From the NCBI GenBank assembly GCA_028748945.1, contig JAQTOL010000023.1, positions 1-15,435 on the forward strand: a stretch of 15,435 nucleotides of DNA. The letters run 5' to 3'. Within the stretch, counting starts at the first letter, position 1. The number at the start of each line of letters is the position of its first letter. The notes beneath the pieces were generated by a model, which did no database searches, had not been told where the DNA came from, and saw nothing but the letters and a program-made list of their open reading frames with translations. Shown piece by piece: positions 38-15,435 of the stretch. The DNA is from Paludibacter sp. GTDB taxonomy: Bacteria > Bacteroidota > Bacteroidia > Bacteroidales > Paludibacteraceae. The position numbers were made by a program, and so were the translations under genes.

Positions 38-1111
38 TCATTTATTAATCACGAATTTCTGAATGGTTTTCCTGTCACCTGATTGTAATTGCAATAAATA
101 CATTCCGTTTTGCAGTTGGTCGAGCCAGATGGTATGTTCGGGTCCTAGCTGATTTTGGAGCAAAACCTGACCGTTTAAGTTATAAATAATATAGGCAGGA
201 TTTACTTCGTCGCATTGAATATTCAATTCATTTTGAACCGGATTGGGTGAAATGGAAAATTGGATCTTCAATTCATTTATTCCCGAAGCTAACGACCAGC
301 TTTCTCCTTTGTGATTTCCCCAAATATATTCTGCCAGTTCCGGATGATCGATAAAGGGGTTTCGGTTTTTTTGTACAACATAAATGGCATTATTCCGACT
401 TATCTCCTTTGAACTTACCGGGTCCTGACGGGACCATTTCAGAAACAGATTAATAGCATAAGTAGATAAACCCAACGTTGGCGTTCCAAAAATAACCGAA
501 CCTTGTCCCTGTGTCCATGTACCACAATCGGATGCATAACGGGTTGCGATGTAAAAATAAATACGTGCAAAGTCACCTTTATATTCGTTTATTGGTTCAA
601 ATACCACACCTGAATATTCGGCGATACTTGATGATCCAAGTTTACTGCCATTGCCTGATGTATAACTTGGTGTTCCTACTTCTCCATATGGATTGTTCCC
701 TCTTTGTGCATTTACGTAGCTATCGGTTGGAACTAAATGTACTATATCCGAATATTGAGGTACAGTTTGAATACCTCCCCACCAACTATTTGGTACTGAG
801 TGTTCACGATTGTAATTTGTACATTCAGGTCCGGTAGTTCCTTTGTTTTGATCCACCGACCAGGTAAAGCTACAATTTGAATACATATCCCATATTTTTC
901 CGGTGGCTGGATTTATATCTGTCGTTGCATAAGCATTCCACAATCCCGGGGTATAAGTTAAAACAACTGAGCCATTGGTAATAATTGATTCAAGTGATGT
1001 TCGTAATGTTGCATCGCTTTTTCCTACAGCAGAATTATAATATCCTGTCGGTTCCTGAGCGAATATGTAAATTGAAAGACTAAGAAGAAAGAGTGTAAAA
1101 AGTTTTTTCAT
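38..1111 (-). CDS. Secreted endonuclease I family nuclease with T9SS sorting domain
   Basis: This 357-aa protein is a predicted extracellular, metal-dependent, non-specific nuclease of the endonuclease I (EndA/Vvn) family, cutting DNA and possibly RNA. Residues 1-18 form a signal peptide (MKK start, hydrophobic core, cleavage near FAQ-E). The family signature NREHSVPNSWWGG lies at 100-112; by family knowledge E103 and H104 correspond to the metal ligand and general base of the beta-beta-alpha-metal active site. N139/N140 in the following RGNNP segment, GDFAR (179-183) and RNPFIDHPE (250-258) are further family landmarks. Residues about 285-357 are a T9SS C-terminal domain beginning SISPNPV and ending KFVINK, so export through the outer membrane is expected. 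The frame can be extended upstream to a TTG at 1171, but that adds 20 residues before an ideal signal peptide and overlaps the likely promoter box, so ATG at 1111 is chosen. Likely roles are nutrient scavenging or extracellular DNA degradation (inference). Confidence 0.9.
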   Translation of the reverse strand: MKKLFTLFLLSLSIYIFAQEPTGYYNSAVGKSDATLRTSLESIITNGSVVLTYTPGLWNAYATTDINPATGKIWDMYSNCSFTWSVDQNKGTTGPECTNYNREHSVPNSWWGGIQTVPQYSDIVHLVPTDSYVNAQRGNNPYGEVGTPSYTSGNGSKLGSSSIAEYSGVVFEPINEYKGDFARIYFYIATRYASDCGTWTQGQGSVIFGTPTLGLSTYAINLFLKWSRQDPVSSKEISRNNAIYVVQKNRNPFIDHPELAEYIWGNHKGESWSLASGINELKIQFSISPNPVQNELNIQCDEVNPAYIIYNLNGQVLLQNQLGPEHTIWLDQLQNGMYLLQLQSGDRKTIQKFVINK

Positions 1112-1168
1112 AAATTCTATTACTGAAATTATTAATTGGAATTCCTCTGTTTTTAAAAAAGAGGGCTG

Positions 1169-1176
1169 CAAATGTA
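1169..1176 (-). promoter_or_regulatory. Bacteroidota-type -7 box for the endonuclease gene
   Basis: Read on the minus strand this is TACATTTG, an exact match to the TAnnTTTG consensus of the Bacteroidota primary sigma factor. It would place the transcription start near 1162 and give a leader of about 50 nt before the ATG at 1111. No convincing TTTG -33 element is seen at the usual distance, so this is a moderate-confidence prediction. Confidence 0.45.
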
Positions 1177-1434: not shown

Positions 1435-3945
1435 TTAACGTTTTATAATTTTGAATAATTCTGTTTTGTCATTAGTTGAAAGGTTCACGAAGTAAATACC
1501 CGAATCGAACGTACTGAAGTCAAACGTTATTACATTCCCTTCCAAAGTGCGATTAACCTTCAACATGCGTCCTGTAGCATCAAACACGACTAACTTCGAA
1601 TCGTTGCCCATCGGATTGTTTAAAGCAATATGCAACCGATCGTCAACCGGATTGGGGTATAACAATGCATTCGTACTTTTGTAAACGCTTAATCCTACCG
1701 TTGGTGAAAGTATAATGGCCAACGAATCGGCAGCTCCTAAACCACAATCGTTCACACCCTGCACTTTGATAAGAGCGGAGGTAAGCGTATTGTCGAAACT
1801 AACCGTGATGCTGTTGCTTGTGCTGTTTCCTGTTACTCCATCAGACAACTGCCAGAAATATGATTGGGCAAATGGAATAGCGGGAACAGTATAAGTAATG
1901 TTGTAAGACCCTTTTAATAATATCGAATCTCCCGAAATGGAAGCAGCTGCTACTGGCTTTGGATTTGCATGTATCAACAAATCAATCGAATAGACCAGAG
2001 TATCCGTTACACAGGGTTCGGTTGATACAACGCGACAGGATATTCTGTCACTATTTACAAGTCCGGTTATCTGAAGAGTATCAACGTTTCCATCCGAAAC
2101 CGGATTCCCGTTTTTAATCCATTGATAACGAGGTTTACCACCATTGATAACAAAAACGTTAAAATGCATCGGTTCACCTTCACAAATAAACGGATCGGAC
2201 TCATTCTGAATGACAGCAGAAACCGTATTCCTGTTTACCCCTGAAACACTTCCATTTCTTTCGATCAGGATCGCAGGTGAACTTTCATTTACGGTGAACG
2301 TTTCGAAGTGCATATTTGCCAGGGAACCGGCTTCAAAACCGGCTTTTGGTACAAACTTCAATCTCATAAGCACCCCGCTATGCTGTAATGCTGCGATTCC
2401 TGTTGATGCAAAATGAATCACTCCATCTTTTTCATTCTCAGCAGAAACCCAGTTTCTGGTCGAAGTTCCGGCAGTTTCCATACCTGCATAACTAAGTTTG
2501 GCATTATCGTAAGAAAGTTCCCCCTGAAAAGAATTTATTGAATCGTGGGGTAAACTTTCAAGATAGAGCGGATAGTGCAACACGCTATCGAAACGACAGA
2601 TGCTTGTATCGGGTATCATAATCCTCGTATCAAAAACTTCAAACTTATTGGAATACGCCGGTGCACCTGCCGAATCAATAACACTCACAATAACTTGTCC
2701 GTGCTTTTTTCCTTTTAGAATTCCCGTCTGATTAATATTTGCAACCGTTGAATCGCTTACTGACCATGTCCATGGCGGGATAGCTTCTCCATAAAGATTT
2801 AATTCAACGGATTCACCAACAATTAGAGCACCTTCTGACGGATAAATAGATCGGTTTTTGAAGTTCATGGGCGAAAAATATCCGTTGGATAAGGCAACCT
2901 TCAGATTTTCGTTCATCAGGGCATTATTTATTTCAATATTGGTTCCCCGTGGATAGGATAAAACCTTGAAACGCACATATACTAAAGTTCCCGGACCAGC
3001 TAAAGAAGTTGTTCCAGCAAAAGCAACAGATACGTTTCCTTCGGCTTTTTTCAAAAAGACCTGACAAGATTCCAAAAGTGTACCCGTCTGGATGATGCTT
3101 TCGGGCGACAACAGATTCGGATTAAAACCGATTTGGAAATTTCCGGACGAAATGTTTAGTCCGGTCAAATCGGTAGTTAGTACCGGAATATCGATAGTTG
3201 CACCTTCCCATTGCGTAAGATTGCCTGGAACACTCAGTTTCAGAGGTCGAATCTCAATAATCTGAGTCGTGTCTCTAACACCATATGCATCCATAGCAAC
3301 CACTTTCTCAATGCCACTGGCATTTGTCGTCAACAGACCATTTTGATCAATGCCGGCCAGATCTCCATTGGTTACATACCAGGCATAAGGAGCTGTTCCT
3401 CCGTAAACATTCATTTGTAACTGATCGCCTTTTGCAATTACTTTAGTATCGGGATAAATGGTAATAGTCGGCGCTTGCTGAATGTTTATATGTCCCGGTA
3501 TAAATGTTACAGCCGGTGATCCTTCGTTCAAATAATTATGCTTCACATCCGTAAAACTAAGTGATATCCACCCGGGATTTTTTAGTATCCATCTAATTAT
3601 AACCAGCTTCCCTTTTCCTGTTAATGGAGCAGTTCCTGCCGCGGCTAAGCTTACAATTCCGGATACTGAAGTATTCAGAACGGGCATACCAAGGAGTTCT
3701 CCTACTGTTCCGGTGATAATCGGCGATTCCGGTTGCAAATAATATGGATTATAACTTAGTTGAAAGGAATACGAATAGACCTCCTTTCCGGTCATTGTAC
3801 TATCCACGTACAATGGCATTTCTAAAATGGTACCTTGTACGGAAGTTGTGTCCGGCATTCGTAACCCAACGGATTGAGCATGTACCCAACCTTCTGCCAA
3901 TAGTATTGGCAGAAGGAAGAGGAATAAAACACTTATCTTCTTCAT
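1435..3945 (-). CDS. T9SS-exported protein with three cohesin-like modules
   Basis: This 836-aa secreted modular protein starts with a signal peptide (1-24, cleavage near VHAQS). Three beta-sandwich modules resembling cohesins follow at about 26-155, 234-357 and 440-567; each opens with a PLYV/IPVL-type strand, has an SYNP/GFNP/SYDN segment and an AxAGTxxLxGxGxL-like core, least clear in the third. The first two are each followed by a Big_2/Ig-like domain (158-232, 364-437). An Ig-like domain (573-662) and a PKD-like domain (665-746) come next, then a T9SS type A sorting domain (about 755-836, LYPNPV start, KIIKR end). No catalytic motif is visible. By family knowledge cohesins bind dockerins, and the gene 11 nt upstream encodes a dockerin, so a scaffold or docking role for that giant beta-helix protein is the favoured inference. 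Cohesin-like folds also occur in proteins without any cellulosome role. No carbohydrate-active enzyme is in the window. Confidence 0.8.
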   Translation of the reverse strand: MKKISVLFLFLLPILLAEGWVHAQSVGLRMPDTTSVQGTILEMPLYVDSTMTGKEVYSYSFQLSYNPYYLQPESPIITGTVGELLGMPVLNTSVSGIVSLAAAGTAPLTGKGKLVIIRWILKNPGWISLSFTDVKHNYLNEGSPAVTFIPGHINIQQAPTITIYPDTKVIAKGDQLQMNVYGGTAPYAWYVTNGDLAGIDQNGLLTTNASGIEKVVAMDAYGVRDTTQIIEIRPLKLSVPGNLTQWEGATIDIPVLTTDLTGLNISSGNFQIGFNPNLLSPESIIQTGTLLESCQVFLKKAEGNVSVAFAGTTSLAGPGTLVYVRFKVLSYPRGTNIEINNALMNENLKVALSNGYFSPMNFKNRSIYPSEGALIVGESVELNLYGEAIPPWTWSVSDSTVANINQTGILKGKKHGQVIVSVIDSAGAPAYSNKFEVFDTRIMIPDTSICRFDSVLHYPLYLESLPHDSINSFQGELSYDNAKLSYAGMETAGTSTRNWVSAENEKDGVIHFASTGIAALQHSGVLMRLKFVPKAGFEAGSLANMHFETFTVNESSPAILIERNGSVSGVNRNTVSAVIQNESDPFICEGEPMHFNVFVINGGKPRYQWIKNGNPVSDGNVDTLQITGLVNSDRISCRVVSTEPCVTDTLVYSIDLLIHANPKPVAAASISGDSILLKGSYNITYTVPAIPFAQSYFWQLSDGVTGNSTSNSITVSFDNTLTSALIKVQGVNDCGLGAADSLAIILSPTVGLSVYKSTNALLYPNPVDDRLHIALNNPMGNDSKLVVFDATGRMLKVNRTLEGNVITFDFSTFDSGIYFVNLSTNDKTELFKIIKR
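3890..3916. repeat. Perfect 27-bp inverted repeat within signal-peptide codons
   Basis: CCTTCTGCCAATA and TATTGGCAGAAGG are exact 13-nt reverse complements around a single central G. In the minus-strand mRNA of the 836-aa gene this covers nucleotides +30 to +56 from the A of the ATG (codons 10-19, encoding LPILLAEGW). It would fold into a stem of about 11 bp with a 5-nt loop. A perfect match of this length is very unlikely by chance in 15 kb. It could slow early translation, set the ratio of the two operon products, or bind a protein. Confidence 0.6.
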
Positions 3946-3956
3946 GGTTTTATCTT

Positions 3957-6900
3957 TTATTTACTGACCTGAAATAGTTGAGAGTCTGTGTAATTAGCTG
4001 TTTGCATCCGAATGACGTAAGTCCCCGATTCGAGTGGATAATCTTTATTTGTAATTTTAATCGAATAGGTTCCTTGTGTTTTATATTCATCAACCAAACC
4101 GGCTACTTTTTGTCCTAACAGATTGAATATATCAAATTTTACCCACTTAGAGTTTTCGTCGAGTTGATAAACCAATCTGGCTTCATCTTTAAACGGATTT
4201 GGATAAAGAGCAGCCATTCCCTGTGATTTGTCTGCGAGGGTAGTTGCAAATCCGGTTCCGCTTTTCATAATCGTTATCGAGCCCGGGGTAGCAGCAAAGG
4301 TGAAATCCTTTTCGTTTGCCAGGAATTTTTCAACACTGATATCCGTCACAATCGATGATGTTGCAATCGCTTTTAATTTCAGATTTGCTAAGGTTCCACT
4401 TCCGTTCAACGAAACCGATCTGGCCATAGCTATGGTAATTAAACCGGTCACATTATCGATATTAAATTCCATAAACATGGACGACAGAAGGTTCTCGACC
4501 GCAACAGCCTCCAGATATTGTGGATTAAATTTGAGTTTAATATCAGCACCCAACAATCCATCCATATTCGCAACACTAAGTGGAACCGTAAACTCGTTAC
4601 TATTATCTACGCTGGCACTTCCGATTGATAAAGCTACAGATGAAAGTTCAAGCGTGGATTTTTTCACTTTGTTAATTGGAAAAGTGGCATCCATCCCTAC
4701 CACATATTGCAAAATCAACGAAGCATCGTAGGCGGTAATACCAGCAGTTCCACTAACATCAGCTACTTGTTGTTGAGCCGGAGAAAGAGTCAGCAAGGTG
4801 GCGGCATGTTTCAAAACCAATGATGCATCGTAAGCCTGAATCAAACCATTGAGACTGACATCACCCATCAGTGGATTGATAACTCCGGTTGTTTTCCACG
4901 GTGTAAAATCAACATGGGTAGTTACATATTCCTGATCATGGCTTTCATCGGTAGTACCATCTGTTTGAATAGGACCTGCATTGCTTCCCCACCAACAATT
5001 AGAAGCCATAATATCAAATGATTTATCCACATTCTTGATTGCATAATAACGATTTTCGTTGAAATCGCAATTTGCAAAAACAGGATTGGATGCTCCGGTA
5101 GCATATACACCGTAATCATTTAAATTGAAGTAACAATTTGTGAATGAAGGGCTTGCATTAACAGTGTTAATTCCCTGTTCTGCATATCGGATAATACAGT
5201 TTTTCATCTTACACAACGGATCGAGTGACTGATCGGTATAAACTAAACCCGACCAGTCGGAAGTTGCCGGTGTGGTTGTCGTACTGTCGGAATTGGAGTC
5301 GCCACCATAAAAGTCATCAAATATACTGGTAAAGACAATTGTACTGTCAGGAGTTGCACCGCCTAAGGCAATCAATCCTCTCGATACTTCCATGCCGTAA
5401 GTATCCCACCAATTCCATTGCTTCCTGAATTTACAAATTACTCCGGGATCAATGGTCAATGACGCACTGGTTCCGATTTTGTAATTTTCGAAATAATATG
5501 GGATATTGTTTTTACCGCCGAAGTTTCTCTTTGGAAGAGTAATGTCCTGTGTCAGAATTTCATCCCTTACTTTGATAACTTTGTACGTACTGCCCGAAAT
5601 TAAATTCCCAACTGTTGAAGCAGGATATGATACCAACGAAATTTGCATTGGATAATTTTGCAAATTGTGGAAAGTACAACTATCAATTCTTGGAGCTGAA
5701 ACTCCATTCATATCAACACCGCAATACAAATTTTCGAAACGAAGATTTTTGAGAGACGGAGATGCGCTTTGATTGATAATCCCATTGTTTCCATATTTAA
5801 ATATTGCATGGTTAATGGAACTCAAATCATCACTCACATCATTAAAGGTAATCCAATCTCCATTCCTATCTGTTGGAGGCAGTGTGGCGGATCCGTTTTG
5901 ATTCATATCTGCCGGATTTCCATAACTGTCATCCAACGCACTGGTGAAAACGACAGGATTAGCGGTCGTCCCTTGTATAATCAACTTTCCATTGACAATA
6001 AATCCATTGGCCTGATTCCAAGTGTATTCTTCGGAACTGATACCAGCAGTGGATTTGAATACAACTCCTGCCGGAATGGTAATAGTAGCACCCGAATTAA
6101 TGTTACAAGGTGACTTCAGAAGATAGCTGATATTGGTATAGCCTCCAAAATCCCGAATTGGAATTGTATCCGATTTTGAATAGGTTTCCTGAATAACTGT
6201 CAAAGCCATATAACCGACATTGAGAGCGGAACAATTTATAAATGTTGGATTTGAGAACATGCTCAGTTCAATTGGAGAAAAATTAATATTATAGAACTGA
6301 CAATTTACAAATTCAGGATTAGCCGAACCAACAACTACGGCTCCGAAATATTGACATAACTGAAGAACACTATTCTCGATGGAAGCATGAGAGTTTTCAA
6401 TTCGCACTCCGGAACTAGCATAAGATATTTCGCAGTACTTTAGCGAATTAACGGTATCGGACACCATGCTGTTATCAACAAACTTAATACCCCCGGGTCT
6501 CACATAATACGGTTGACCCCAGTCTCCTTTTGCAGGAGCTGTGGTATTTCCGTTATTATTGGAATCACCACCTTTCGAGTCATCATTAAATGAGGTGAAA
6601 TAGATTTTGCTTGTTGGCGTACCATTGGCTATCAAATTACCATTTACAATAATATAGGTATTGTATGGCCAACTGTCACCTCTGAATTTCACAACTACAT
6701 CCGGTAAAATTGTCAACTTGGCATTGCTCGAAATAGTCAGTTTATCAACCACATAAGCAATATTGGCAATACCTGCCATAGTTCGTGGAGCCAAAGTAGC
6801 TCTCGTTGAAAGCGTTCCTTCAATAATTTTTATTGCCTGACTGTAATTAGATACAAATGCAATATGCGAAAAAGAAGGATTGGCCGTCAACGACATAGCA

Positions 6901-9422
6901 ATTGGATCCAAACTACTATTTTTAATATCAACACTATCAATCAAAGGTGTGGAATTTCCATTGCAATAAACCCCATAATTCGACGAATTTGTAATCGTAG
7001 AATTTTTTAGTTTTCCTGCTGCATTCTCGAAAGTAACTCCACCTTCATCAAGATTACCGGGATATTTAATTATTGCATTGTTAATCAAGCAAAAAGCATC
7101 ATCGCTGGTCGATCTGAATTTGATGGAGCTCCAGTCACCTGCAACAGGTGTCGATGCATTTCCATCGCCGTTGGTATCATAAGGGTTACCAGCATTATCG
7201 TCCTTGATGGAAGTAAATATAACTTTTTGATCAGGAGTTCCATTTACTTTTAATCCTCCATCAACGAATATACCGTATCCATCATTATTGTTAATTGCCT
7301 TAATAACAACGCCCGGATCAATATTTACATAAGTGCCTGAATTGATTGTCATATCGGACAACAATACGTAAGTGATATTCGTAAATCCGGCAACATCCCG
7401 TTTCTTGATGGTCCCGTTCAAACAGACGTTTCCGCCAATTAAGCCCAATGCATTCCAACCTACATTGGTATAAGTTATACCCGAAATGGTTGGATTGGAT
7501 GGTCCTGAAATATTGATAGGGGTGTTGAGAATATTCACCATCTGATTGTTTGACAGAACCGGACTGGCCGAACGATAACAGGAAACTGCATAATGCAAAT
7601 CCTTAAACTCGCAGTTGGAGATTGTAGGACTTGCATCAATAATTCCTATTGCCGTATTGTTAACATACTCTGTTACGCTGCATGATGAAAATGGATACCA
7701 ATTAATCTGAGCATATTTAACACGGCAATAATTCATTGTTCCACCACTACCGGGATTGAAGATAATGCCACCCCAGTCGCTCACTACAGGCGAAGTTACA
7801 GTTCCATCTTTATTGCAGTCGGCAGGATAACCGTAGTTATCATCCCTTGCCGAAGTAAAATTAATCATACTGTCAGCAGTAGCATTTGCTATCAGGTTTC
7901 CATTTACAATAATCCGGTGAGTATACCAATCGCCGGAATACGATTTAACGGTAATTCCTTTGTTAATAGTCAGTGTCTTACCGCTTGGGACGGTTATTTC
8001 GTCCAGTATCAAATACGTAATATTGGGAACATCGGTAAAAGTTCTGACTTTCAAGGTTCCATCAGCCAACATCTCGCCACCAATTATACCAATAGCATCA
8101 TAAGCATTATCCGAAAATGATAGTGTGTTAGTACTCATTGTTGGATTAGCTTCGAACGACATAGCCAACGGAGTCATTTGGCTGGATCCAATCGTATTAT
8201 TTGTCAGCACAGGATTGGATGTTCCCTGCATATAAACACCGATATAATTATTCGAAATCTCGCATAAATCTATTATTGGTGATGCATTGATTGTGTTGAC
8301 TCCTCCTTTGTTTCCCGAACCGGCATAGCGAATCATGCAACGACGTAATAAACAACCGGTATCAGAACTGGCATCCTGAAAATAGATACCATTCCAGTTT
8401 TGCGACTGTGGAGCCGTTGAAGTTCCATCTTTATTAGTGTCTCCACCCCAATTATCGTCCTGATATGAGGTGAAAAATATATTCTCTCCAACTGCAGCAT
8501 TAGCAATGAGAGCACCTTCAACACTCAAACTGGTACCATTGTAAAACTTGAGTATATTACTTGAACCTATAATTAGACTACCTGTTTCCTGTATAGTAAA
8601 CCATGAAAATAAGTATGGAATATCTACAACCGGAAGTGTCATGACATGATATAAATTACCAAAATTCATCCTTACGGCAGTCATATTATTTCCACTAAAA
8701 TTATTCAGTCCTCCTACAGTCAGATCTGCGTAATTATTATAGGTTATAGGATAATTACATGAACTAATAATTAAATCGGCTATACTCACATGAGCGTTTT
8801 CATTCAATCCTAATCCATTATTATAATTTAGAATATGAACTCCTTCCAGAGTTACATGTGAATCATTGTTTGACAGTATACCATCGCAGTAATTCAATGC
8901 GTTCGAGCTGGTTGAACTGATTGTACCATTGGTCATGTGTAGAACACCGGGAGCATCAATAGTGATGGCATTATTTGAAAAATTTGTCACATTGGTATTA
9001 TTCAGGGTTGCTGTTCCTTTATTGACAGAAAGCTCCGAACCATAAGCAATTTCACAATCAGTAAGGTTTATACTACCGGTGTTCCAGTAGTCTCCAATTT
9101 GGATCTGACCCCAATTGCCGGGTTGAGGACTTACATTGCTGGAAGTGAAAGTGACATTTGTGGCGTTCAATGTACCATTGACGTACAAATTTGCAGAGTT
9201 ATTGAATTTTACCGTTACACCTGACTGAATAGTCAGAGTAAATCCCGATTGCACAGTTAGATAAGAAGGAATCACATATGGGCTTCCGCTCAAATCTAAT
9301 ATTGAGTCTTTAGAAATTGTACCCGTAAGCTCGGTTTGTGCAAAAAGTGGTAAGACCATCAAGCAGGAGAACGAAAAGAATAAAACAATTCTTTTCGTGA
9401 GTTTAGATAAGATTGTTTTCAT
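3957..9422 (-). CDS. Giant right-handed beta-helix protein with dockerin, cohesin-like module and T9SS domain
   Basis: This 1821-aa protein is predicted to be secreted and surface-attached or released. Residues 1-29 are a signal peptide (LPLFAQ-T). Residues about 45-265 are a first beta-helix portion. Residues 267-1510 hold six units of about 200-215 residues, each starting near an (N/D)IxY segment, then a VNG-like strand, FTSxxDD, a Ca-loop-like DxNxDG segment, and PbH1-type turns (NASPxxxNC, GVYxxGxSNPV). A CWWGSNAGP motif typical of such helices lies at 1476-1484. Next come a dockerin-like pair of loops (1519-1582, each AYDASLxL), a cohesin-like module (about 1589-1718) and a T9SS domain (1735-1821, LYPNPF start). 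It is first in an operon, 11 nt before the three-cohesin gene. No catalytic residues of polysaccharide lyases are recognisable, so adhesion, structure or polysaccharide binding are all possible. Pairing with the downstream protein is inferred. Confidence 0.85.
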   Translation of the reverse strand: MKTILSKLTKRIVLFFSFSCLMVLPLFAQTELTGTISKDSILDLSGSPYVIPSYLTVQSGFTLTIQSGVTVKFNNSANLYVNGTLNATNVTFTSSNVSPQPGNWGQIQIGDYWNTGSINLTDCEIAYGSELSVNKGTATLNNTNVTNFSNNAITIDAPGVLHMTNGTISSTSSNALNYCDGILSNNDSHVTLEGVHILNYNNGLGLNENAHVSIADLIISSCNYPITYNNYADLTVGGLNNFSGNNMTAVRMNFGNLYHVMTLPVVDIPYLFSWFTIQETGSLIIGSSNILKFYNGTSLSVEGALIANAAVGENIFFTSYQDDNWGGDTNKDGTSTAPQSQNWNGIYFQDASSDTGCLLRRCMIRYAGSGNKGGVNTINASPIIDLCEISNNYIGVYMQGTSNPVLTNNTIGSSQMTPLAMSFEANPTMSTNTLSFSDNAYDAIGIIGGEMLADGTLKVRTFTDVPNITYLILDEITVPSGKTLTINKGITVKSYSGDWYTHRIIVNGNLIANATADSMINFTSARDDNYGYPADCNKDGTVTSPVVSDWGGIIFNPGSGGTMNYCRVKYAQINWYPFSSCSVTEYVNNTAIGIIDASPTISNCEFKDLHYAVSCYRSASPVLSNNQMVNILNTPINISGPSNPTISGITYTNVGWNALGLIGGNVCLNGTIKKRDVAGFTNITYVLLSDMTINSGTYVNIDPGVVIKAINNNDGYGIFVDGGLKVNGTPDQKVIFTSIKDDNAGNPYDTNGDGNASTPVAGDWSSIKFRSTSDDAFCLINNAIIKYPGNLDEGGVTFENAAGKLKNSTITNSSNYGVYCNGNSTPLIDSVDIKNSSLDPIAMSLTANPSFSHIAFVSNYSQAIKIIEGTLSTRATLAPRTMAGIANIAYVVDKLTISSNAKLTILPDVVVKFRGDSWPYNTYIIVNGNLIANGTPTSKIYFTSFNDDSKGGDSNNNGNTTAPAKGDWGQPYYVRPGGIKFVDNSMVSDTVNSLKYCEISYASSGVRIENSHASIENSVLQLCQYFGAVVVGSANPEFVNCQFYNINFSPIELSMFSNPTFINCSALNVGYMALTVIQETYSKSDTIPIRDFGGYTNISYLLKSPCNINSGATITIPAGVVFKSTAGISSEEYTWNQANGFIVNGKLIIQGTTANPVVFTSALDDSYGNPADMNQNGSATLPPTDRNGDWITFNDVSDDLSSINHAIFKYGNNGIINQSASPSLKNLRFENLYCGVDMNGVSAPRIDSCTFHNLQNYPMQISLVSYPASTVGNLISGSTYKVIKVRDEILTQDITLPKRNFGGKNNIPYYFENYKIGTSASLTIDPGVICKFRKQWNWWDTYGMEVSRGLIALGGATPDSTIVFTSIFDDFYGGDSNSDSTTTTPATSDWSGLVYTDQSLDPLCKMKNCIIRYAEQGINTVNASPSFTNCYFNLNDYGVYATGASNPVFANCDFNENRYYAIKNVDKSFDIMASNCWWGSNAGPIQTDGTTDESHDQEYVTTHVDFTPWKTTGVINPLMGDVSLNGLIQAYDASLVLKHAATLLTLSPAQQQVADVSGTAGITAYDASLILQYVVGMDATFPINKVKKSTLELSSVALSIGSASVDNSNEFTVPLSVANMDGLLGADIKLKFNPQYLEAVAVENLLSSMFMEFNIDNVTGLITIAMARSVSLNGSGTLANLKLKAIATSSIVTDISVEKFLANEKDFTFAATPGSITIMKSGTGFATTLADKSQGMAALYPNPFKDEARLVYQLDENSKWVKFDIFNLLGQKVAGLVDEYKTQGTYSIKITNKDYPLESGTYVIRMQTANYTDSQLFQVSK
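4677..4868 (-). other. Dockerin-like domain with degenerate calcium loops
   Basis: Residues 1519-1582 of the beta-helix protein contain two EF-hand-like segments, GDVSLNGLIQAYDASLVLKH and DVSGTAGITAYDASLILQYV. At loop positions 1, 3, 5, 9 and 12 they carry D-S-N-Q-D (D1521 to D1532) and D-S-T-T-D (D1555 to D1566). The end Asp residues are kept, but positions 3 and 5, usually N/D in classical type I dockerins, are S, N or T. The AYDASLxLxY helix start is typical of many non-clostridial dockerins. Confidence 0.75.
4893..8624 (-). repeat. Six tandem long beta-helix repeats with Ca-loop-like insertions
   Basis: Within the 1821-aa protein the (N/D)IxY start recurs at residues 267, 467, 682, 887, 1097 and 1306. 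The acidic loop recurs with its first Asp at 328, 535, 749, 953, 1172 and 1375. Loop sequences are DTNKDGTSTAP, DCNKDGTVTSP, DTNGDGNASTP, DSNNNGNTTAP, DMNQNGSATLP and DSNSDSTTTTP, each about 5-8 residues after a DD pair and shortly before an NW or DW. Spacing between loops is 203-219 residues. The units are clearly diverged at the protein level, so this is an old duplication rather than a recent array. Confidence 0.85.
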
Positions 9423-10095: not shown

Positions 10096-10614
10096 ATGTA
10101 TCCACAAATCACAGCAGCCATTCCCGAAATAGTTCTTGATGAAATCATTTTGAAGTACAGGGATAAACCCGGAATGTTACTTTCAACATTGGAAGAAGTG
10201 CAGGAAATAAATCCGTTGAAGTTTCTTTCAAAAGAGACTTTATCCGTAGTTTCCAGAAAATTAAATGTTCCCTACACGCAGGTTTATAGTGTGGCTACTT
10301 TTTACTCGTTTTTTAATTTAAAACCGCAGGGAAAGCACAGCATCATTGTTTGTCGCGGAACGGCATGTCATACCAAAGGCTCCAAAGCTTTGCTCAATGA
10401 AGTGGGTCCCATCCTGGGGCTCGGAACTGAGGAAATTGAAATTGATCCTTCGTTTACTACTCCTGATAATTTATTTACCATTAAAACAGTTGCCTGTTTT
10501 GGACAGTGTGCTCAGTCGCCTGTTGTGGCGGTGGATGGAATTATGTACAGCAATGTAAATTCCCAGAAACTACTGAAAATATTAAAGAAAGTAAAGTCGA
10601 ACCCAAATGCCTGA
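10096..10614 (+). CDS. hydC: NuoE-like [2Fe-2S] subunit of NAD(P)-linked [FeFe] hydrogenase
   Basis: This 172-aa cytoplasmic protein has the thioredoxin-like ferredoxin fold of the complex I 24-kDa (NuoE) family, called HydC or HndA in multimeric [FeFe] hydrogenases. The cluster ligands are C86 and C91 (CRGTAC, C-x4-C) and C134 and C138 (CFGQC, C-x3-C), all present. The N-terminal helical part (about 9-60) and the conserved VYSVATFYSFFNLKPQGKH stretch (63-81) fit the family, and the length is normal. No other complex I genes accompany it; the neighbours are a NuoF-like fusion and a [FeFe] hydrogenase catalytic subunit, so it belongs to a soluble hydrogenase complex. By analogy with HydABC it sits beside the FMN subunit and contributes one [2Fe-2S] cluster. 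No Shine-Dalgarno is seen, which is usual in Bacteroidota. The next gene starts 160 bp later. Confidence 0.92.
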   Translation: MYPQITAAIPEIVLDEIILKYRDKPGMLLSTLEEVQEINPLKFLSKETLSVVSRKLNVPYTQVYSVATFYSFFNLKPQGKHSIIVCRGTACHTKGSKALLNEVGPILGLGTEEIEIDPSFTTPDNLFTIKTVACFGQCAQSPVVAVDGIMYSNVNSQKLLKILKKVKSNPNA

Positions 10615-10774: not shown

Positions 10775-13700
10775 ATGAACGCAACAAAACTAGAAATCTT
10801 AAGACAGCAGAGTTTAGAAAATATACTTCCTTCCACACCCATGATAATGGTTGGAATGGGCACGTGTGGAATTGGTAATGGTGCCGATTTGATTTTTAAT
10901 CGTCTTCAGGAAGAAATTGAATCCAATAACTTCGAATGTAAATTAAAAATAACCGGATGTTTTGGATTTTGTTCTCAGGAACCGCTTGTAACTGTTTATC
11001 AGCCGGGAAAACCCTTATTGGTTTATAGTCAGGTGAGTGAAAAAGATACTTCCGGTATTGTCAAAGGATTGATTAAAGGGAAAGTTTATACAAAGAATAT
11101 ACTTTGCCGCATAGATTCATGGAATCACCAAACAGCAGAAATTAAGTATGGAAAAGACTATGAAGATATTCCTCATTGGGACGAGATTCCATTCTTCAAA
11201 GGGCAGAAAAAAATAGTTTTACGCAATGCCGGACTTATCGATCCTGAGTCAATAAATGATTATATAGCCATTGGCGGTTATCATGCTTTTACAAAAGCCC
11301 TGTATACTATGTCTTCATCGGAGGTTATAGGCGAAGTGCTGGAATCTAAACTCAGGGGACGGGGAGGCGCCGGCTATCCTACCGGTAAAAAATGGACGGT
11401 TTTACATCAGGCTGTTTCAGATGAAAAGTATCTTATCTGCAACGCGGATGAAGGTGACCCTGGTGCGTACATGAACCGTAACGAGATTGAAAGTGATCCG
11501 CATTCGATTATAGAAGGGATGTTGATAGGTGGATATGCAATGGGTGCTACTCATGGAATTGTTTATATGCGTGCTGAATATCCGTTGGCAGTTAAGCGGC
11601 TTAAAATTGCTATTGAACAGGCTAAAGAATTTCGATTTTTAGGCAATAATATTCTTGGATTAGGTTACGATTTTAATCTGGAAGTTGTTGAAGGAGCCGG
11701 TGCATTTGTTTGCGGGGAAGAAACTGCACTGATTGCATCCATCGAAGGGAAAGCGGGACGTCCTGTCCCACGACCACCTTATCCATCGCAAAGGGGATTA
11801 TATGGAAAACCTACGAGCATCAATAATGTGGAAACATGGTGTAATATCCCCGTTATTATTGAAAAAGGGAGTAAATGGTTTACTGAAACCGGTTCGGCAA
11901 ATAGTAAAGGAACAAAAGTTTTTTCGTTGGTTGGTAAGGTGAAAAATACCGGATTGGTAGAATTACCTTTAGGTTCAACCATCGAACAGTTTGTATTTCA
12001 GATTGGAGAAGGAACCGGAAATTCAAAACGGGTAAAAGCCGTTCAAACAGGCGGACCTTCGGGTGGATGCATCCCGTTGGAACATTTCTCAACTCCTGTT
12101 GATTATGAATCTTTGTCAGGTTTGGGAGCCATTATGGGGTCAGGAGGAATGGTTGTGATGGATCAGGATAATTGTATGGTTGATGTGGCCCGGTATTTTC
12201 TTGAATTTAATTCGGCGGAATCATGTGGAAAATGTACACCTTGCCGTGAAGGACTATCCCAGGCTTTGGCTATTCTTACCAAAATAACGAAAGGAAAAGG
12301 GACGCATGAGGATATTACAATGCTTGAGCTGTTAAGCAGAACAATTAAAGATACAGCAATTTGTGGATTGGGACAAACCGCTCCGAATCCAATTCTTACC
12401 ACACTGAAATATTTCAGACAGGAATATGAAGAACATATACAAGCCGGGCGTTGCTATGCCGGAACATGTGAATCCTTATATCTGGCTTTGTGCGAAAACA
12501 GTTGTCCGCTTCATATGAATATTCCCGGTTATATTGAACTCATAAAGGAAGATCGGATTGAAGAGGCTTTTGAACTTACCTTACGTGATAATCCGATTCC
12601 CGGAACAATAGGACGAATCTGTCATTTCCATTGTCAGATGCGTTGCCGTCGTGATCAATTGGATGAGCCGGTTTCGCAGGGTGAAATCCATCGTTATCTG
12701 GCGGATACTATGTACAAACTGGGAAAGGAGAGCGAGATATACAATAAGTTGATCAAAGAAAAACTTTCTTCCACCGGAAAACAAATTGCCATTGTCGGTG
12801 CCGGGCCGGCCGGACTCACAGCTGCTTATTACCTGATCAGGTTGGGTCATGCAGTGACAGTTTACGATGCTTTTCCTGAAGCTGGGGGCGTTGTCCGGTT
12901 TGGTATTCCGCAATACCGTTTACCAAAATCTGTATTACAAAAGGAAGTTGAATTTATCAAGAAACTGGGTGTAAAATTCGTATTTAATCAGAAATTAGGG
13001 GAAAATCTGTCGTTTGATTATTTAAGTAACGAATATGATGCGGTTTATCTCGCTATTGGAGCGTGGAAAGATATTGATCTGAATATTCCGGGCGAAAACA
13101 TAGCTGGTGTTTTTGCAGGTACCGATTTTTTAAAAGAACATGCTTTAGGTAAAACCCCGAAACTCGGTCAGCGGGTTGTTGTTATTGGTGCAGGAAATGT
13201 TGCCATCGATGCAGCACGAAGTATATGGCGAATGGGAAAAGAAGTGACAGTGGTTTACCGTCGTGAAAAAGCGGATATGCCGGCCAATGCAGCCGAAATA
13301 TTTGAATCGGAAGCTGAAAAAATCAACTATCATTTTCTGGCTGCTCCCAGCGAAATTATTTCGGATAAAACCGGACATGTGAAATCGCTGAAAGTTGAAG
13401 TGATGAAGGGTGGAAGTATTGATGCTTCGGGAAGAAGAAGGCCGGTATCGACCGGTAGATTCGAAGAAATCCCGTGTGATTCAATTATTCTGGCAGTGGG
13501 CGAGCGTGTCGATAATTATTTTATTACAGAAGAAGGTCTGAAACTTGAAACACGGAAAGATGGACGGTTAATTGTCGATCCTTTTACATTCCAAACTTCA
13601 CTTCCGGGAGTATTTGCCGGTGGTGATGCCGTTACCGGGCCGGCTACTGCGGCTGAAGCTATGGGGATGGCAAAAAAAGCTGCCGAATCAATTGATTTTA

Positions 13701-13915
13701 TATTGATGAAGGAAAAAAGATTCCATAAGTTATTCAGAACTTTCGAATATGCTAACAGGGTTCCCATTAATCCGAAGAAAAGCGCAAAGAATAGGTCTGA
13801 AAAACTTACGGTAGAAGAGCGGATTGGAAATTTCCAGGAAGTGGAAATCGGCTATTCAGGTGAACAGGCCAGAAATGAAGTAAACAGATGTTTGAGATGT
13901 GACGTAAAATGCTAA
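10775..13915 (+). CDS. hydB: HydB (NuoF-like) fused to GltD/NfnB-type flavoprotein
   Basis: This 1046-aa protein is predicted to be the NAD(H)-reactive diaphorase subunit of an [FeFe] hydrogenase complex, extended by a second flavin/NADPH module. Residues about 22-105 are a thioredoxin-like ferredoxin domain (C31, C62, C66). The NuoF core has RGRGGAGYPTGKKW (194-207) and NADEGDPGAYMNR (223-235) for FMN/NADH, GAGAFVCGEETALI (307-320), an SLBB-like part, and the [4Fe-4S] ligands C484, C487, C490 and C530. In place of the usual HydB ferredoxin tail comes a GltD-type Fe-S domain (C560, C565, C573, C577, C616, C620, C624). It is followed by an FAD-binding GAGPAG (675-680), an NAD(P)H-binding GAGNVA (805-810) with YRR (828-830), and the FAD motif GVFAGGD (945-951). 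The tail CLRCDVKC (1039-1046) adds three Cys. GxGxxA plus paired Arg suggests NADPH (inference). Residues 540-570 read through continuously, so this is a true fusion with no frameshift. A relationship to Sporomusa-type Nfn (Stn) transhydrogenases is possible. Confidence 0.9.
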   Translation: MNATKLEILRQQSLENILPSTPMIMVGMGTCGIGNGADLIFNRLQEEIESNNFECKLKITGCFGFCSQEPLVTVYQPGKPLLVYSQVSEKDTSGIVKGLIKGKVYTKNILCRIDSWNHQTAEIKYGKDYEDIPHWDEIPFFKGQKKIVLRNAGLIDPESINDYIAIGGYHAFTKALYTMSSSEVIGEVLESKLRGRGGAGYPTGKKWTVLHQAVSDEKYLICNADEGDPGAYMNRNEIESDPHSIIEGMLIGGYAMGATHGIVYMRAEYPLAVKRLKIAIEQAKEFRFLGNNILGLGYDFNLEVVEGAGAFVCGEETALIASIEGKAGRPVPRPPYPSQRGLYGKPTSINNVETWCNIPVIIEKGSKWFTETGSANSKGTKVFSLVGKVKNTGLVELPLGSTIEQFVFQIGEGTGNSKRVKAVQTGGPSGGCIPLEHFSTPVDYESLSGLGAIMGSGGMVVMDQDNCMVDVARYFLEFNSAESCGKCTPCREGLSQALAILTKITKGKGTHEDITMLELLSRTIKDTAICGLGQTAPNPILTTLKYFRQEYEEHIQAGRCYAGTCESLYLALCENSCPLHMNIPGYIELIKEDRIEEAFELTLRDNPIPGTIGRICHFHCQMRCRRDQLDEPVSQGEIHRYLADTMYKLGKESEIYNKLIKEKLSSTGKQIAIVGAGPAGLTAAYYLIRLGHAVTVYDAFPEAGGVVRFGIPQYRLPKSVLQKEVEFIKKLGVKFVFNQKLGENLSFDYLSNEYDAVYLAIGAWKDIDLNIPGENIAGVFAGTDFLKEHALGKTPKLGQRVVVIGAGNVAIDAARSIWRMGKEVTVVYRREKADMPANAAEIFESEAEKINYHFLAAPSEIISDKTGHVKSLKVEVMKGGSIDASGRRRPVSTGRFEEIPCDSIILAVGERVDNYFITEEGLKLETRKDGRLIVDPFTFQTSLPGVFAGGDAVTGPATAAEAMGMAKKAAESIDFILMKEKRFHKLFRTFEYANRVPINPKKSAKNRSEKLTVEERIGNFQEVEIGYSGEQARNEVNRCLRCDVKC

Positions 13916-13976: not shown

Positions 13977-15435
13977 ATGAAAATAATAATAAACAATCAC
14001 ACAGTCGAAGTAAATAAAGGCACAACGATTATGGATGCCTGCCAATCCGTAGGAATAAATATTCCTTCCCTCTGTTACCTAAAAGATGTATCGAGCAATG
14101 CTTCATGTGGAGTTTGCGTGGTAGAAGTAAAAGACGCTCGTTCTTTATTACGTTCGTGCATCACTCCTGTTTTTGAAGGAATGGAAATTACAACGAACAG
14201 TCAGCGGGTGATGGAATCCAGAAAAGTAAATGTGGAACTGCTTATGGCTAACCATCCGCAGGATTGTTTGATTTGTGACCGGAATCAAAACTGCGAATTG
14301 CAACAACTTACTTTCGATCTGGGCATCGATAAAAAAAGATTTGTCCGCACACGCAAGGAGTATGGACATGAAGATGAAACGTCCTTTTCGTTGATTCGTG
14401 ATCCGGAGAAATGTATTTTGTGTGGCCGCTGTGTGGCTGTTTGCAGCGAAATGCAAACAGTGAAAGCCATTGATTTCTCGGGTCGTGGATTAAAAACTAA
14501 AATTTCCACTTTTTTTGATTTAGGACTGGGGATGGTAGCCTGTACCAATTGCGGACAATGTGCGTTGGTTTGTCCGACTGGTGCAATAACCGAGCGAAGC
14601 GAAATAAAGGAAGTCTGGAAAGCCCTGCACAATCCCGAAAAAGTAGTGTTGGTACAAACGGCTCCCGCCATACGCATTGGTATTGGCGAAGCCATGGGGA
14701 TGCCTAATGGAAGCCTTGTTACCGGACAAATGGTTGCCGGTCTGCGTAGATTGGGTTTTGATAAAGTGTTCGATACCAATTTTACAGCCGATTTGACAAT
14801 TATTGAAGAAGGCAATGAATTAATTAACCGGATCAAAAACGGAGGGGTTCTGCCAATGATAACTTCCTGTTCGCCCGGATGGATCAAATTCATCGAGCAT
14901 TTCTTTCCGCAATCGTTGAAACATTTGTCCAGTTGCAAATCGCCTCAACAAATGTTCGGAGCCATTGCCAAAACCTATTATGCTGAAAAAACAGGCATCG
15001 ATCCCCGGAATATTGTAGTCGTGTCGGTAATGCCTTGTACAGCTAAGAAATTTGAAGCCCGGCGTCCGGAAATGGATGGTGCTTTCCATTACTGGAAAGA
15101 CAAAATGAACCTGACAGAAGAATCCTACTTTTACGATGTGGATGCTGTTCTTACCACTCGTGAACTGGCCCGGATGTTCAAAGAGACCGGAGTTGATTTT
15201 AGTCATTTGCCACAGGAACAATTTGACAGTCCATTGGGGACATCCACAGGTGCTGCTGTTCTTTTCGGTGCAACAGGAGGTGTTATGGAGGCTGCTTTGC
15301 GTACGGCTTACGAAGTTTTTACCGGTTTGACTTTGCCAAATCTTGATTTTATTGCAGTACGTGGAATGGATGGAATTAAAGAGGCTGAAATTGATCTGAA
15401 CGGAACAAAAATCAAAGTGGCTGTAGCCCATACTT
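13977..15435 (+). CDS. hydA: [FeFe] hydrogenase catalytic subunit, 3' end beyond window
   Basis: The first 486 residues of a HydA/HndD-type [FeFe] hydrogenase are present; the frame is still open at the window edge. It catalyses reversible H2 formation at the H-cluster. In order: a plant-type [2Fe-2S] domain (C33, C44, C47, C61), a His-Cys [4Fe-4S] motif (H93, C97, C100, C106), and two ferredoxin-like [4Fe-4S] sites (C146-C149-C152-C156 and C189-C192-C195-C199). In the H-cluster domain, L1 reads TSCSPGW (296-302) and L2 reads MPCTAKKFE (352-360); the L3 motif with the last two cluster ligands lies past the end. Classical monomeric enzymes have TSCCPxW at L1; as I recall, Ser at the second Cys is common in NAD(P)-linked HydA/HndD relatives. 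ATG at 13977 immediately precedes the ferredoxin fold, 61 bp after hydB, so co-transcription with hydC and hydB is likely. Maturases (HydE, F, G) are not in the window. Confidence 0.93.
   Translation, partial: MKIIINNHTVEVNKGTTIMDACQSVGINIPSLCYLKDVSSNASCGVCVVEVKDARSLLRSCITPVFEGMEITTNSQRVMESRKVNVELLMANHPQDCLICDRNQNCELQQLTFDLGIDKKRFVRTRKEYGHEDETSFSLIRDPEKCILCGRCVAVCSEMQTVKAIDFSGRGLKTKISTFFDLGLGMVACTNCGQCALVCPTGAITERSEIKEVWKALHNPEKVVLVQTAPAIRIGIGEAMGMPNGSLVTGQMVAGLRRLGFDKVFDTNFTADLTIIEEGNELINRIKNGGVLPMITSCSPGWIKFIEHFFPQSLKHLSSCKSPQQMFGAIAKTYYAEKTGIDPRNIVVVSVMPCTAKKFEARRPEMDGAFHYWKDKMNLTEESYFYDVDAVLTTRELARMFKETGVDFSHLPQEQFDSPLGTSTGAAVLFGATGGVMEAALRTAYEVFTGLTLPNLDFIAVRGMDGIKEAEIDLNGTKIKVAVAHT

What the first reader, a model, noticed from the sequence alone, without database searches (positions are those of the whole stretch)
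10775..13915. HydB fused to a complete NfnB/GltD-type NADPH flavoprotein in an [FeFe] hydrogenase operon
The NuoF-like diaphorase, normally ending in a small ferredoxin domain in HydABC enzymes, here runs into a full GltD/NfnB module with FAD and NAD(P)H Rossmann motifs and 7 upstream plus 3 C-terminal Cys. Together with hydC and hydA this predicts a single complex with two pyridine-nucleotide sites, two flavins and the H-cluster. It might act as an H2-evolving transhydrogenase, oxidising NADH and NADPH (with or without ferredoxin) together, or bifurcating. Trimeric HydABC and Stn/Nfn transhydrogenases are known separately; having both in one operon through a fusion is what deserves attention. 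The functional claim is inference.
Basis: partly seen in the sequence, partly recalled or inferred. Interest (0 to 1): 0.75.

Follow-up and report, generated by a model that had tools for sequence, protein, structure and literature searches.

The report
Hydrogenase subunit with NADP(H) module
In a Paludibacter-like bacterium, the subunit that normally lets a hydrogen-making enzyme use ferredoxin has had its ferredoxin part swapped for a module that should use NADP(H), so the enzyme probably links hydrogen to both NADH and NADPH; the arrangement is real and widespread and was noted in print in 2024 for another phylum, but no measurement of what it does was found.

Summary
Window 10775-13915 is one intact 1046-residue gene: HydB (Trx-like, FMN/NADH and [4Fe-4S] domains) running into a complete GltD/NfnB-type FAD/NAD(P)H module, between hydC and hydA. 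It is no assembly error: 71 of 80 related loci carry both halves in one ORF, all 71 with hydC upstream, 68 with hydA downstream. The GltD module replaces the ferredoxin-binding B3/B4 domain of HydB; the presumed Zn-hinge ligands stay. It is circularly permuted as in StnC, so two C-terminal Cys complete a set of eight ligands for two [4Fe-4S] clusters. The eighth is His639 in this clade, Lys in other fusions and Stn, Glu in NfnB. Prior art: the same architecture was published in 2024 as 'sub-type I BfuB' of Hydrogenedentota, without biochemistry. New here: fused HydBs do not form one clade (AU p 3.7e-5), and some sit beside formate-dehydrogenase-type or Glu_synthase-domain genes. Best reading: a ferredoxin-free hydrogenase coupling H2 to NAD(H) and NADP(H), NADP(H) taking ferredoxin's place. 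That reaction is inferred, not shown.

The parts
10096..10614 (+). hydC: 172 aa Trx-like [2Fe-2S] subunit (cluster C1), four Cys 86, 91, 134, 138
   Evidence: PF01257 E 3.6e-40; Cys positions; a HydC with the four-Cys pattern precedes the fusion in 71 of 71 full-length loci
10775..13915 (+). hydB-GltD fusion gene, 1046 aa
   Evidence: both halves in one ORF in 71 of 80 loci
10838..11134 (+). N-terminal Trx-like domain of HydB (about residues 22-120); three Cys at the cluster positions (C31, C62, C66) instead of the usual four, as in T. sibiricus NfnB
   Evidence: alignment to 9n5u_B
11339..11851 (+). NuoF-type FMN/NADH domain (residues 189-359)
   Evidence: PF01512 E 1e-42; HydB half 54% identical over 546 columns to 9n5u_B
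12173..12469 (+). [quoted passage not shown]
   Evidence: all eight invariant in 57 fusions; passages
12488..12718 (+). Fer4_20 part: C573, C577, C616, C620, C624 and H639, six of eight predicted ligands for two [4Fe-4S] clusters
   Evidence: ligand columns; alignment to StnC and NfnL
12689..12691 (+). His639 codon: position of the non-Cys cluster ligand (Lys170 in StnC, Glu in NfnB)
   Evidence: alignment; His 20/20 in this clade, Lys 30/30 in other fusions, Lys 4/4 in Stn type, Glu 3 and one gap of 4 free NfnB/GltA-type modules
12782..13672 (+). FAD and NADP(H) Rossmann domains (residues 670-966), including R715 (= StnC R239) and Y828-R829-R830
   Evidence: PF07992 E 6.4e-37; these residues invariant in 57 fusions
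13805..13912 (+). C-terminal segment (about residues 1011-1046) that corresponds to the N-terminus of NfnB: circular permutation, supplies ligands C1039 and C1042
   Evidence: 5jca_L residues 14-48 match query residues 462-496 of the GltD half; same order as StnC
13977..15434 (+). hydA, [FeFe]-hydrogenase subunit, 486 aa up to the contig end; H-cluster motifs TSCSPGW and MPCTAKK present
   Evidence: PF02906 E 5.2e-80; best NCBIfam model FeFe_hydrog_A6, 721.8 bits, under its cut-off of 765 for this cut protein; motifs

Best explanation
A soluble three-subunit [FeFe]-hydrogenase in which the HydBC core keeps the NADH/FMN site, cluster B1, the HydC [2Fe-2S] cluster and the Zn hinge, but the mobile ferredoxin-binding domain (B3/B4) has been exchanged for a circularly permuted GltD module with two [4Fe-4S] clusters, FAD and an NADP(H) site. 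Proposed path: H-cluster and HydA clusters to B1 to FMN; FMN gives one branch to NAD(H) directly and the other through the HydC cluster and the two Fer4_20 clusters to FAD and NADP(H). NADP(H) thus takes ferredoxin's place: NADH + NADPH + 2 H+ <-> NAD+ + NADP+ + 2 H2, without ferredoxin. Shown here: gene, domains, ligand conservation, operon, absence of the ferredoxin domain. Inferred: cofactors, NADP specificity, electron path, obligatory coupling, direction. Likely role in a fermenter: venting NADH and NADPH electrons as H2 at about 100-150 Pa, against about 3 Pa for NADH alone.
For: Domain order. The match to solved HydBs ends at residue 568-575, before their ferredoxin domain, and a plain HydB (L197) shows an eight-Cys ferredoxin-like tail there. 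All eight ligands for two clusters present; H639 in the ligand column. Presumed Zn-hinge ligands invariant in 57 of 57 fusions. HydC Cys pattern in 71 of 71. R715 and Y828-R829-R830 invariant in 57, shared with NfnL 5jca, solved with NADP(H), and with StnC. In the 51 of 68 HydAs where my P3 pattern matched, only 76-99 residues follow the start of P3, so the HydA tail that forms a bridge with the HydB tail in T. maritima (passages) seems short or missing too. Model mean pLDDT 89.6, pTM 0.83; the best PDB chains match either the HydB half (9bp5_B) or the GltD half (9bov_A, 8oh5_C, 5jca_L); in the 50 Foldseek rows shown the longest alignment is 607 columns. H2 pressures computed from literature potentials (potentials from passages).
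Against: No activity data. Bfu enzymes are said to have an invariant core with five clusters in BfuB (PMC9304861 section 5), and a HydABC lacking B3/B4 did not bifurcate (quoted in PMC11406978). The Trx-like domain has three of four Cys. The NADH/NADPH gap is only about 90-100 mV, so strict coupling gains little. The genome also has NfnAB, which already links NADP(H), NAD(H) and ferredoxin. NADP specificity rests on recalled motif knowledge. The mobile-hinge mechanism may not tolerate a module of about 480 residues.
Confidence: 0.5

Rival explanations
1. No bifurcation: the enzyme is a plain hydrogenase with two independent doors, NADH at FMN and NADPH at FAD, also acting as an NADH/NADPH transhydrogenase. 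All cofactors are one wire.
For: B3/B4 absent; Trx domain keeps three of four Cys; S. wolfei-type HydABC without B3/B4 makes H2 from NADH alone (quoted); small energy gap between NADH and NADPH.
Against: The presumed Zn hinge and the HydC four-Cys cluster are kept in the fusions examined (57 of 57; 71 of 71). The short HydB of this genome on C306 lacks the hinge, though it too has a HydC-like neighbour (29% identity).
Confidence: 0.27
2. Two bifurcating flavins: the GltD FAD bifurcates in the NfnB manner (NADPH to ferredoxin and onward), giving a four-way H2/NADH/NADPH/ferredoxin enzyme. This is close to the suggestion in PMC11406978.
For: GltD fold close to NfnL (38-39% identity, TMt 0.83 to 5vj7_A and 5jca_L); the key arginine is present (R715); ferredoxin docks near these clusters in Nfn (recalled).
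Against: No NfnA gene seen in the operon as far as the window shows it (genes after hydA are not in the window). StnC, a near solved relative, keeps the arginine but does not bifurcate (PMC10482914 passages). The NfnB glutamate ligand is His here.
Confidence: 0.15
3. The GltD module is a structural or regulatory relic with no NADP(H) turnover.
For: StnC carries a dead FdhF domain, so relics occur.
Against: The seven Cys ligands, the Y-R-R motif and R715 are invariant in 57 fusions down to 44% identity, and the eighth position is His or Lys by clade.
Confidence: 0.05
4. Assembly or annotation artefact.
For: Fragmented genome, 540 contigs.
Against: Same ORF in 71 of 80 loci, including records titled Petrimonas sp. 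IBARAKI complete genome (L100), Seramator thermalis SYSU GA16112 (L091) and Proteiniphilum sp. X52 (L110).
Confidence: 0.01

Closest known systems
Sub-type I BfuABC hydrogenases of Hydrogenedentota (PMC11406978, 2024)
   Same: BfuB with the B3/B4 domain replaced by a DPD_II (two [4Fe-4S]) plus FAD/NAD(P) domain; group A3 [FeFe] hydrogenase operon.
   Different: Their nearest relatives are named as Spirochaetota, Pseudomonadota, Planctomycetota, Verrucomicrobiota, Kiritimatiellota, which fits names among the Lys-type fusions seen here (Sedimentisphaerales, Verrucomicrobia, Phycisphaerae, Spirochaetes) better than the window's His-type clade, though that clade too has Spirochaetota. No Hydrogenedentota sequence was at hand, so this is unproven. 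They propose FAD bifurcation; NADPH does not occur in the main text.
Bifurcating HydABC (T. maritima, A. woodii, T. kivui; group A3, Bfu type 1)
   Same: HydC, HydB core and HydA; 46-56% identity in HydB.
   Different: Ferredoxin domain B3/B4 gone; GltD added; NADP(H) instead of ferredoxin predicted.
StnABC / Nfn-Bfu transhydrogenase (S. ovata 8oh5, C. saccharolyticus 9bov, T. sibiricus 9n5u)
   Same: Same two ingredients: HydBC core and a circularly permuted GltD with FAD and NADPH site.
   Different: There GltD sits in the NuoG-like subunit and StnB keeps its ferredoxin domain; no H-cluster; Lys, not His, at the eighth ligand.
NfnAB
   Same: GltD/NfnB fold, FAD and NADP(H) motifs.
   Different: NfnB is not permuted, has Glu at the ligand position, pairs with NfnA.
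[FeFe] group A2 (HydDB: GltD-type protein, no NuoF, encoded downstream of HydA)
   Same: GltD linked to an [FeFe] hydrogenase.
   Different: Here NuoF and GltD are one protein, encoded upstream of hydA, so HydDB's rule on the downstream gene (passage) does not fit it.

Membership tests
Bfu / bifurcating HydABC (group A3) | HydC with C1 [2Fe-2S] (four Cys) | tested here: met
   C86, C91, C134, C138; pattern in 71 of 71 loci
Bfu / bifurcating HydABC (group A3) | NuoF-type FMN/NADH domain and B1 cluster ligands | tested here: met
Bfu / bifurcating HydABC (group A3) | B2/Zn hinge (three Cys, one His) | tested here: met
   C467, H554, C560, C565 invariant in 57; assignment of the four residues inferred and the alignment
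Bfu / bifurcating HydABC (group A3) | B3/B4 two-[4Fe-4S] ferredoxin domain at the HydB C-terminus | tested here: not met
   replaced by Fer4_20 + Pyr_redox_2; so not filed as a Bfu enzyme in the strict sense of PMC9304861
Bfu / bifurcating HydABC (group A3) | B5 cluster in the N-terminal Trx-like domain | tested here: inconclusive
   three Cys only (C31, C62, C66); T. sibiricus NfnB, from an enzyme shown to bifurcate (passage), has the same pattern
Bfu / bifurcating HydABC (group A3) | HydA with H-cluster motifs | tested here: met
   P1 and P2 in the window; P3 lies beyond the contig end; a HydA C-terminal piece with CPGGC is on contig C397, not joined
Bfu / bifurcating HydABC (group A3) | strictly coupled turnover of two electron carriers | not testable with these tools
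   needs purified enzyme
Sub-type I BfuABC (PMC11406978) | DPD_II + FAD/NAD(P) domain in place of B3/B4 | tested here: met
Sub-type I BfuABC (PMC11406978) | same clade as the Hydrogenedentota proteins | not tested
   no Hydrogenedentota sequence obtained; taxon names suggest the Lys-type fusions are nearer
Stn / Nfn-Bfu transhydrogenase | GltD inside the NuoG-like subunit, ferredoxin domain on StnB | tested here: not met
   against passages of PMC10482914
NfnAB | Glu at the non-Cys ligand position of NfnB | tested here: not met
   His639
NfnAB | NfnA partner encoded alongside | tested here: inconclusive
   none in the window, but genes after hydA lie beyond the contig end

The most novel reading that the evidence does not exclude
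Exchanging the ferredoxin domain of HydB for an NADP(H) module is a recurrent evolutionary move that turns the HydBC core from a ferredoxin/NADH into an NADPH/NADH bifurcating engine. It happened more than once and is coupled to hydrogenase, formate dehydrogenase and a glutamate-synthase-like partner; the window's clade is a separate version marked by a histidine-ligated [4Fe-4S] cluster.
Probability: 0.35. Interest if true: 0.75.

Novelty: new variant of a known kind. Interest (0 to 1): 0.52.

Why it matters
If NADP(H) replaces ferredoxin, these bacteria can turn NADPH and NADH into H2 directly, at H2 pressures (about 100-150 Pa) between those of NADH-only and NADH/ferredoxin hydrogenases. 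Annotation that reads a NuoF-linked [FeFe] hydrogenase as ferredoxin/NADH bifurcating (group A3) would then be wrong for members of Paludibacter, Proteiniphilum, Petrimonas, Ignavibacteriae and Spirochaetota that carry it. It also offers a natural domain-swap test of whether the HydBC core itself, rather than the ferredoxin domain, does the bifurcating. A Proteiniphilum bin was reported to express an '[FeFe]-type NADP+-dependent hydrogenase (HndABCD)' highly (PMC9853277, passages); whether that is this enzyme was not checked.

Tried and rejected
Artefact: rejected. Single origin of all fused HydBs: rejected on the HydB-core tree, AU p 3.7e-5 with 52 fused and 20 plain rows. An earlier test (p 7.8e-187, 51 against 21) had L048 labelled plain; it is a fusion cut by the end of its locus inside Fer4_20, so it was relabelled and the test repeated. 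Both tests left out two rows of the first tree: the long outgroup L002 and L193, identical to L137. The rows were my choice from the loci at hand, and the groups were set after a first look at similarity, so the p value is not a clean one; the tree is a quick one. The window's clade itself is one side of a branch with support 100. A Rnf/Nfn absence pattern as functional evidence: no use, 22 of 23 handles have a PF10418 hit and 18 of 23 an RnfC_N hit at E <= 0.001; G640 and G621 look like the same genome. Residues that would show a changed NADH site in the NuoF part: clade differences at 232-238, 305, 327, 329 and others could not be interpreted. P3 of HydA was found by my pattern in 51 of 68 HydAs; of the 17 misses several are cut sequences and the rest full-length variants not examined. 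Atomic distances between clusters: no model file was in the Python box. VIA-align rows mostly test residues 26-572; the ranges of a few HydB chains (9bp5_B, 9n5u_B, 8oh5_B) reach 633-636 and those of 7q4w_B and 8a5e_B 1044, with 409-555 residues aligned. Second structure job not used. Papers: PMC11406978 sections 7 and 8 whole plus passages; PMC9304861 section 5 parts 1 and 2 of 3 plus passages; PMC10482914, PMC9499530, PMC5037454, PMC6288185, PMC12918512, PMC6052044, PMC9853277, PMC7768429 passages only; others search listings only. Figures and supplements were not seen; Fig. 4 of PMC11406978 is said to show BfuB domains of 2,415 homologues and may include this clade. That I found no other description of the fusion, and no measurement of its activity, rests on searches.
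Full report
What is there. The window is the whole of contig C23 of a fragmented, 85% complete genome; it carries T9SS sorting tails and its relatives are Bacteroidota. On the + strand lie hydC (10096-10614), a 1046-residue hydB fusion (10775-13915) and hydA (13977 to the contig end). Pfam and NCBIfam read the middle gene as NuoF-type FMN/NADH and [4Fe-4S] domains followed by Fer4_20 and Pyr_redox_2. The nearest named genome found is Paludibacter sp. UBA6032, 94-99% identical over the three blasted parts of this protein.

Is it real? Yes. The best 120 protein clusters all span the fusion (of 7999 scored only these were listed). A scan of genome contigs with the Fer4_20/FAD-start part (residues 585-722) of the window's clade gave 178 stretches, 151 relatives, best 80 kept. 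Of these 80, 71 hold both halves in one ORF (judged on residues 121-560 and 661-1000). The other nine are seven cut by contig ends, L125 with a shortened N-terminal match, and L111 split over several ORFs. HydC precedes 71 of 71 and HydA follows 68 of 71: L070 and L078 end first, and L109 has its HydA in an overlapping frame my filter missed. They come from Paludibacter, Proteiniphilum, Petrimonas, Seramator, other Bacteroidota, Ignavibacteriae and Spirochaetota.

How common? At E <= 1e-130 and with only two or three candidates scored per genome (so lower bounds): 11 of 395 genomes of the phylum sample carry a full-length fusion, this one included. In the order sample there are 10 of 247, this one included, counting G400 (N-terminal part missing), G441 (alignment to residue 820, frame of 1094 aa with both halves) and G532 (cut inside Fer4_20). 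In a sample of the phylum of Rectinema (Spirochaetota), searched with a second-group fusion at E <= 1e-120, there are 25 of 247. Three other members of the window's own family in the order sample have no match.

Anatomy. Against solved HydBs the match runs to residue 568-575 and stops where their ferredoxin domain begins. A plain HydB (L197) has an eight-Cys ferredoxin-like tail there. The downstream half matches StnC residues 104-566 and NfnL 50-474. The NfnL N-terminal segment with its RCLQC motif matches the C-terminus of our protein, so the GltD module is circularly permuted, as in StnC. This gives eight ligands for two [4Fe-4S] clusters: C573, C577, C616, C620, C624, H639, C1039, C1042. 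All but H639 are invariant in 57 fusions. H639 is in the column of StnC Lys170 (named in PMC10482914, passages). In the GltD alignment this column is His in 20 of 20 rows of the window's clade, Lys in 30 of 30 other fusions, Lys in 4 of 4 Stn-type proteins, and Glu in 3 of 4 free modules with a gap in the fourth. A pattern search found His in 69 of 71 loci and no match in two. That His binds the cluster is a prediction.

HydB's Zn hinge (three Cys and one His, PMC9499530 passages) is kept, if as I infer it is C467, H554, C560, C565 (all invariant). The N-terminal Trx-like domain has three Cys, not four, like the bifurcating T. sibiricus protein. HydA has the H-cluster motifs P1 and P2; P3 is beyond the contig end. 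Its best NCBIfam model is 'NADH-dependent [FeFe] hydrogenase, group A6', under that model's cut-off.

Evolution. On a tree of the HydB core the window's clade is one branch with support 100, and other fused HydBs lie in several places among plain ones. With L048 relabelled, parsimony needs 5 changes, and one clade of all fused rows is rejected (AU p 3.7e-5, 52 against 20 rows; caveats in Tried and rejected). So the domain was exchanged, gained or lost several times.

Partners. In the second group of fusions 19 of 29 loci also show HydA with its hydrogenase part next door within 1.5 kb flanks. Eight loci that lacked this were opened wider (so not a random sample): five have a molybdopterin (formate-dehydrogenase-type) gene near the fusion (L203, L204, L205, L206, L209), two have a Glu_synthase-domain gene with a short NuoG-like gene (L207, L208), and L202 shows neither.

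Prior art. [quoted passage not shown] The architecture is therefore in print; I found no measured function. The Stn papers describe the same two ingredients arranged otherwise.

How it most likely works. NADP(H) at the GltD FAD takes the place of ferredoxin; NADH stays at FMN; HydA makes or uses H2. With E' of -280 mV (NADH) and -370 to -380 mV (NADPH), the equilibrium H2 pressure is 99-147 Pa, against 3 Pa for NADH alone and about 16 kPa for NADH plus ferredoxin at -500 mV. For scale, a purified NADH-only HydAB reached 2.2-40.2 Pa (PMC7311640, abstract start in the listing). Coupling is a guess: a non-bifurcating wire with two doors remains a serious rival. Confidence 0.5 for the full statement; I would put NADP(H) reactivity itself at about 0.75.

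Noticed in passing
window 1435-9422 (-): Two large proteins with T9SS sorting tails next to the operon: 836 aa with two cohesin stretches, Big_2 and PKD_6, and 1821 aa with beta-helix, cohesin and a weak dockerin match (20.5 bits, under the 22.9 cut-off). Cohesin and possible dockerin parts in a Bacteroidota secretome.
   Followed up: no
window 38-1171 (-): Endonuclease I with a T9SS sorting tail.
   Followed up: no
L202-L209 (Spirochaetota and Bacteroidota): GltD-fused HydB beside molybdopterin formate-dehydrogenase-type genes (5 of 8 loci opened) or a Glu_synthase-domain gene (2 of 8), instead of an ordinary HydA.
   Followed up: partly
G000 contig C306 (L002, L007): A second hydrogenase in the same genome: HydA with a short HydB (406 aa frame) without N-terminal Trx or C-terminal ferredoxin domain and with a HydC-like neighbour, the non-bifurcating look.
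   Followed up: partly
G000 contig C95 (L004, L155): Separate nfnAB: NfnB of 512 aa with the Glu ligand, next to the end of NfnA.
   Followed up: yes
G000 contig C397 (L010): C-terminal piece of a HydA whose start resembles the last 20 or so bases of the window with one mismatch; probably the rest of this hydA. Not joined.
   Followed up: partly
L100 12162-13586 and L093 11937-13337: A distant [FeFe]-hydrogenase-like gene (27% to HydA, 467-475 aa) a little downstream of the operon, possibly a sensory enzyme; the own genome has a 475-aa Fe-hydrogenase frame on C73.
   Followed up: no
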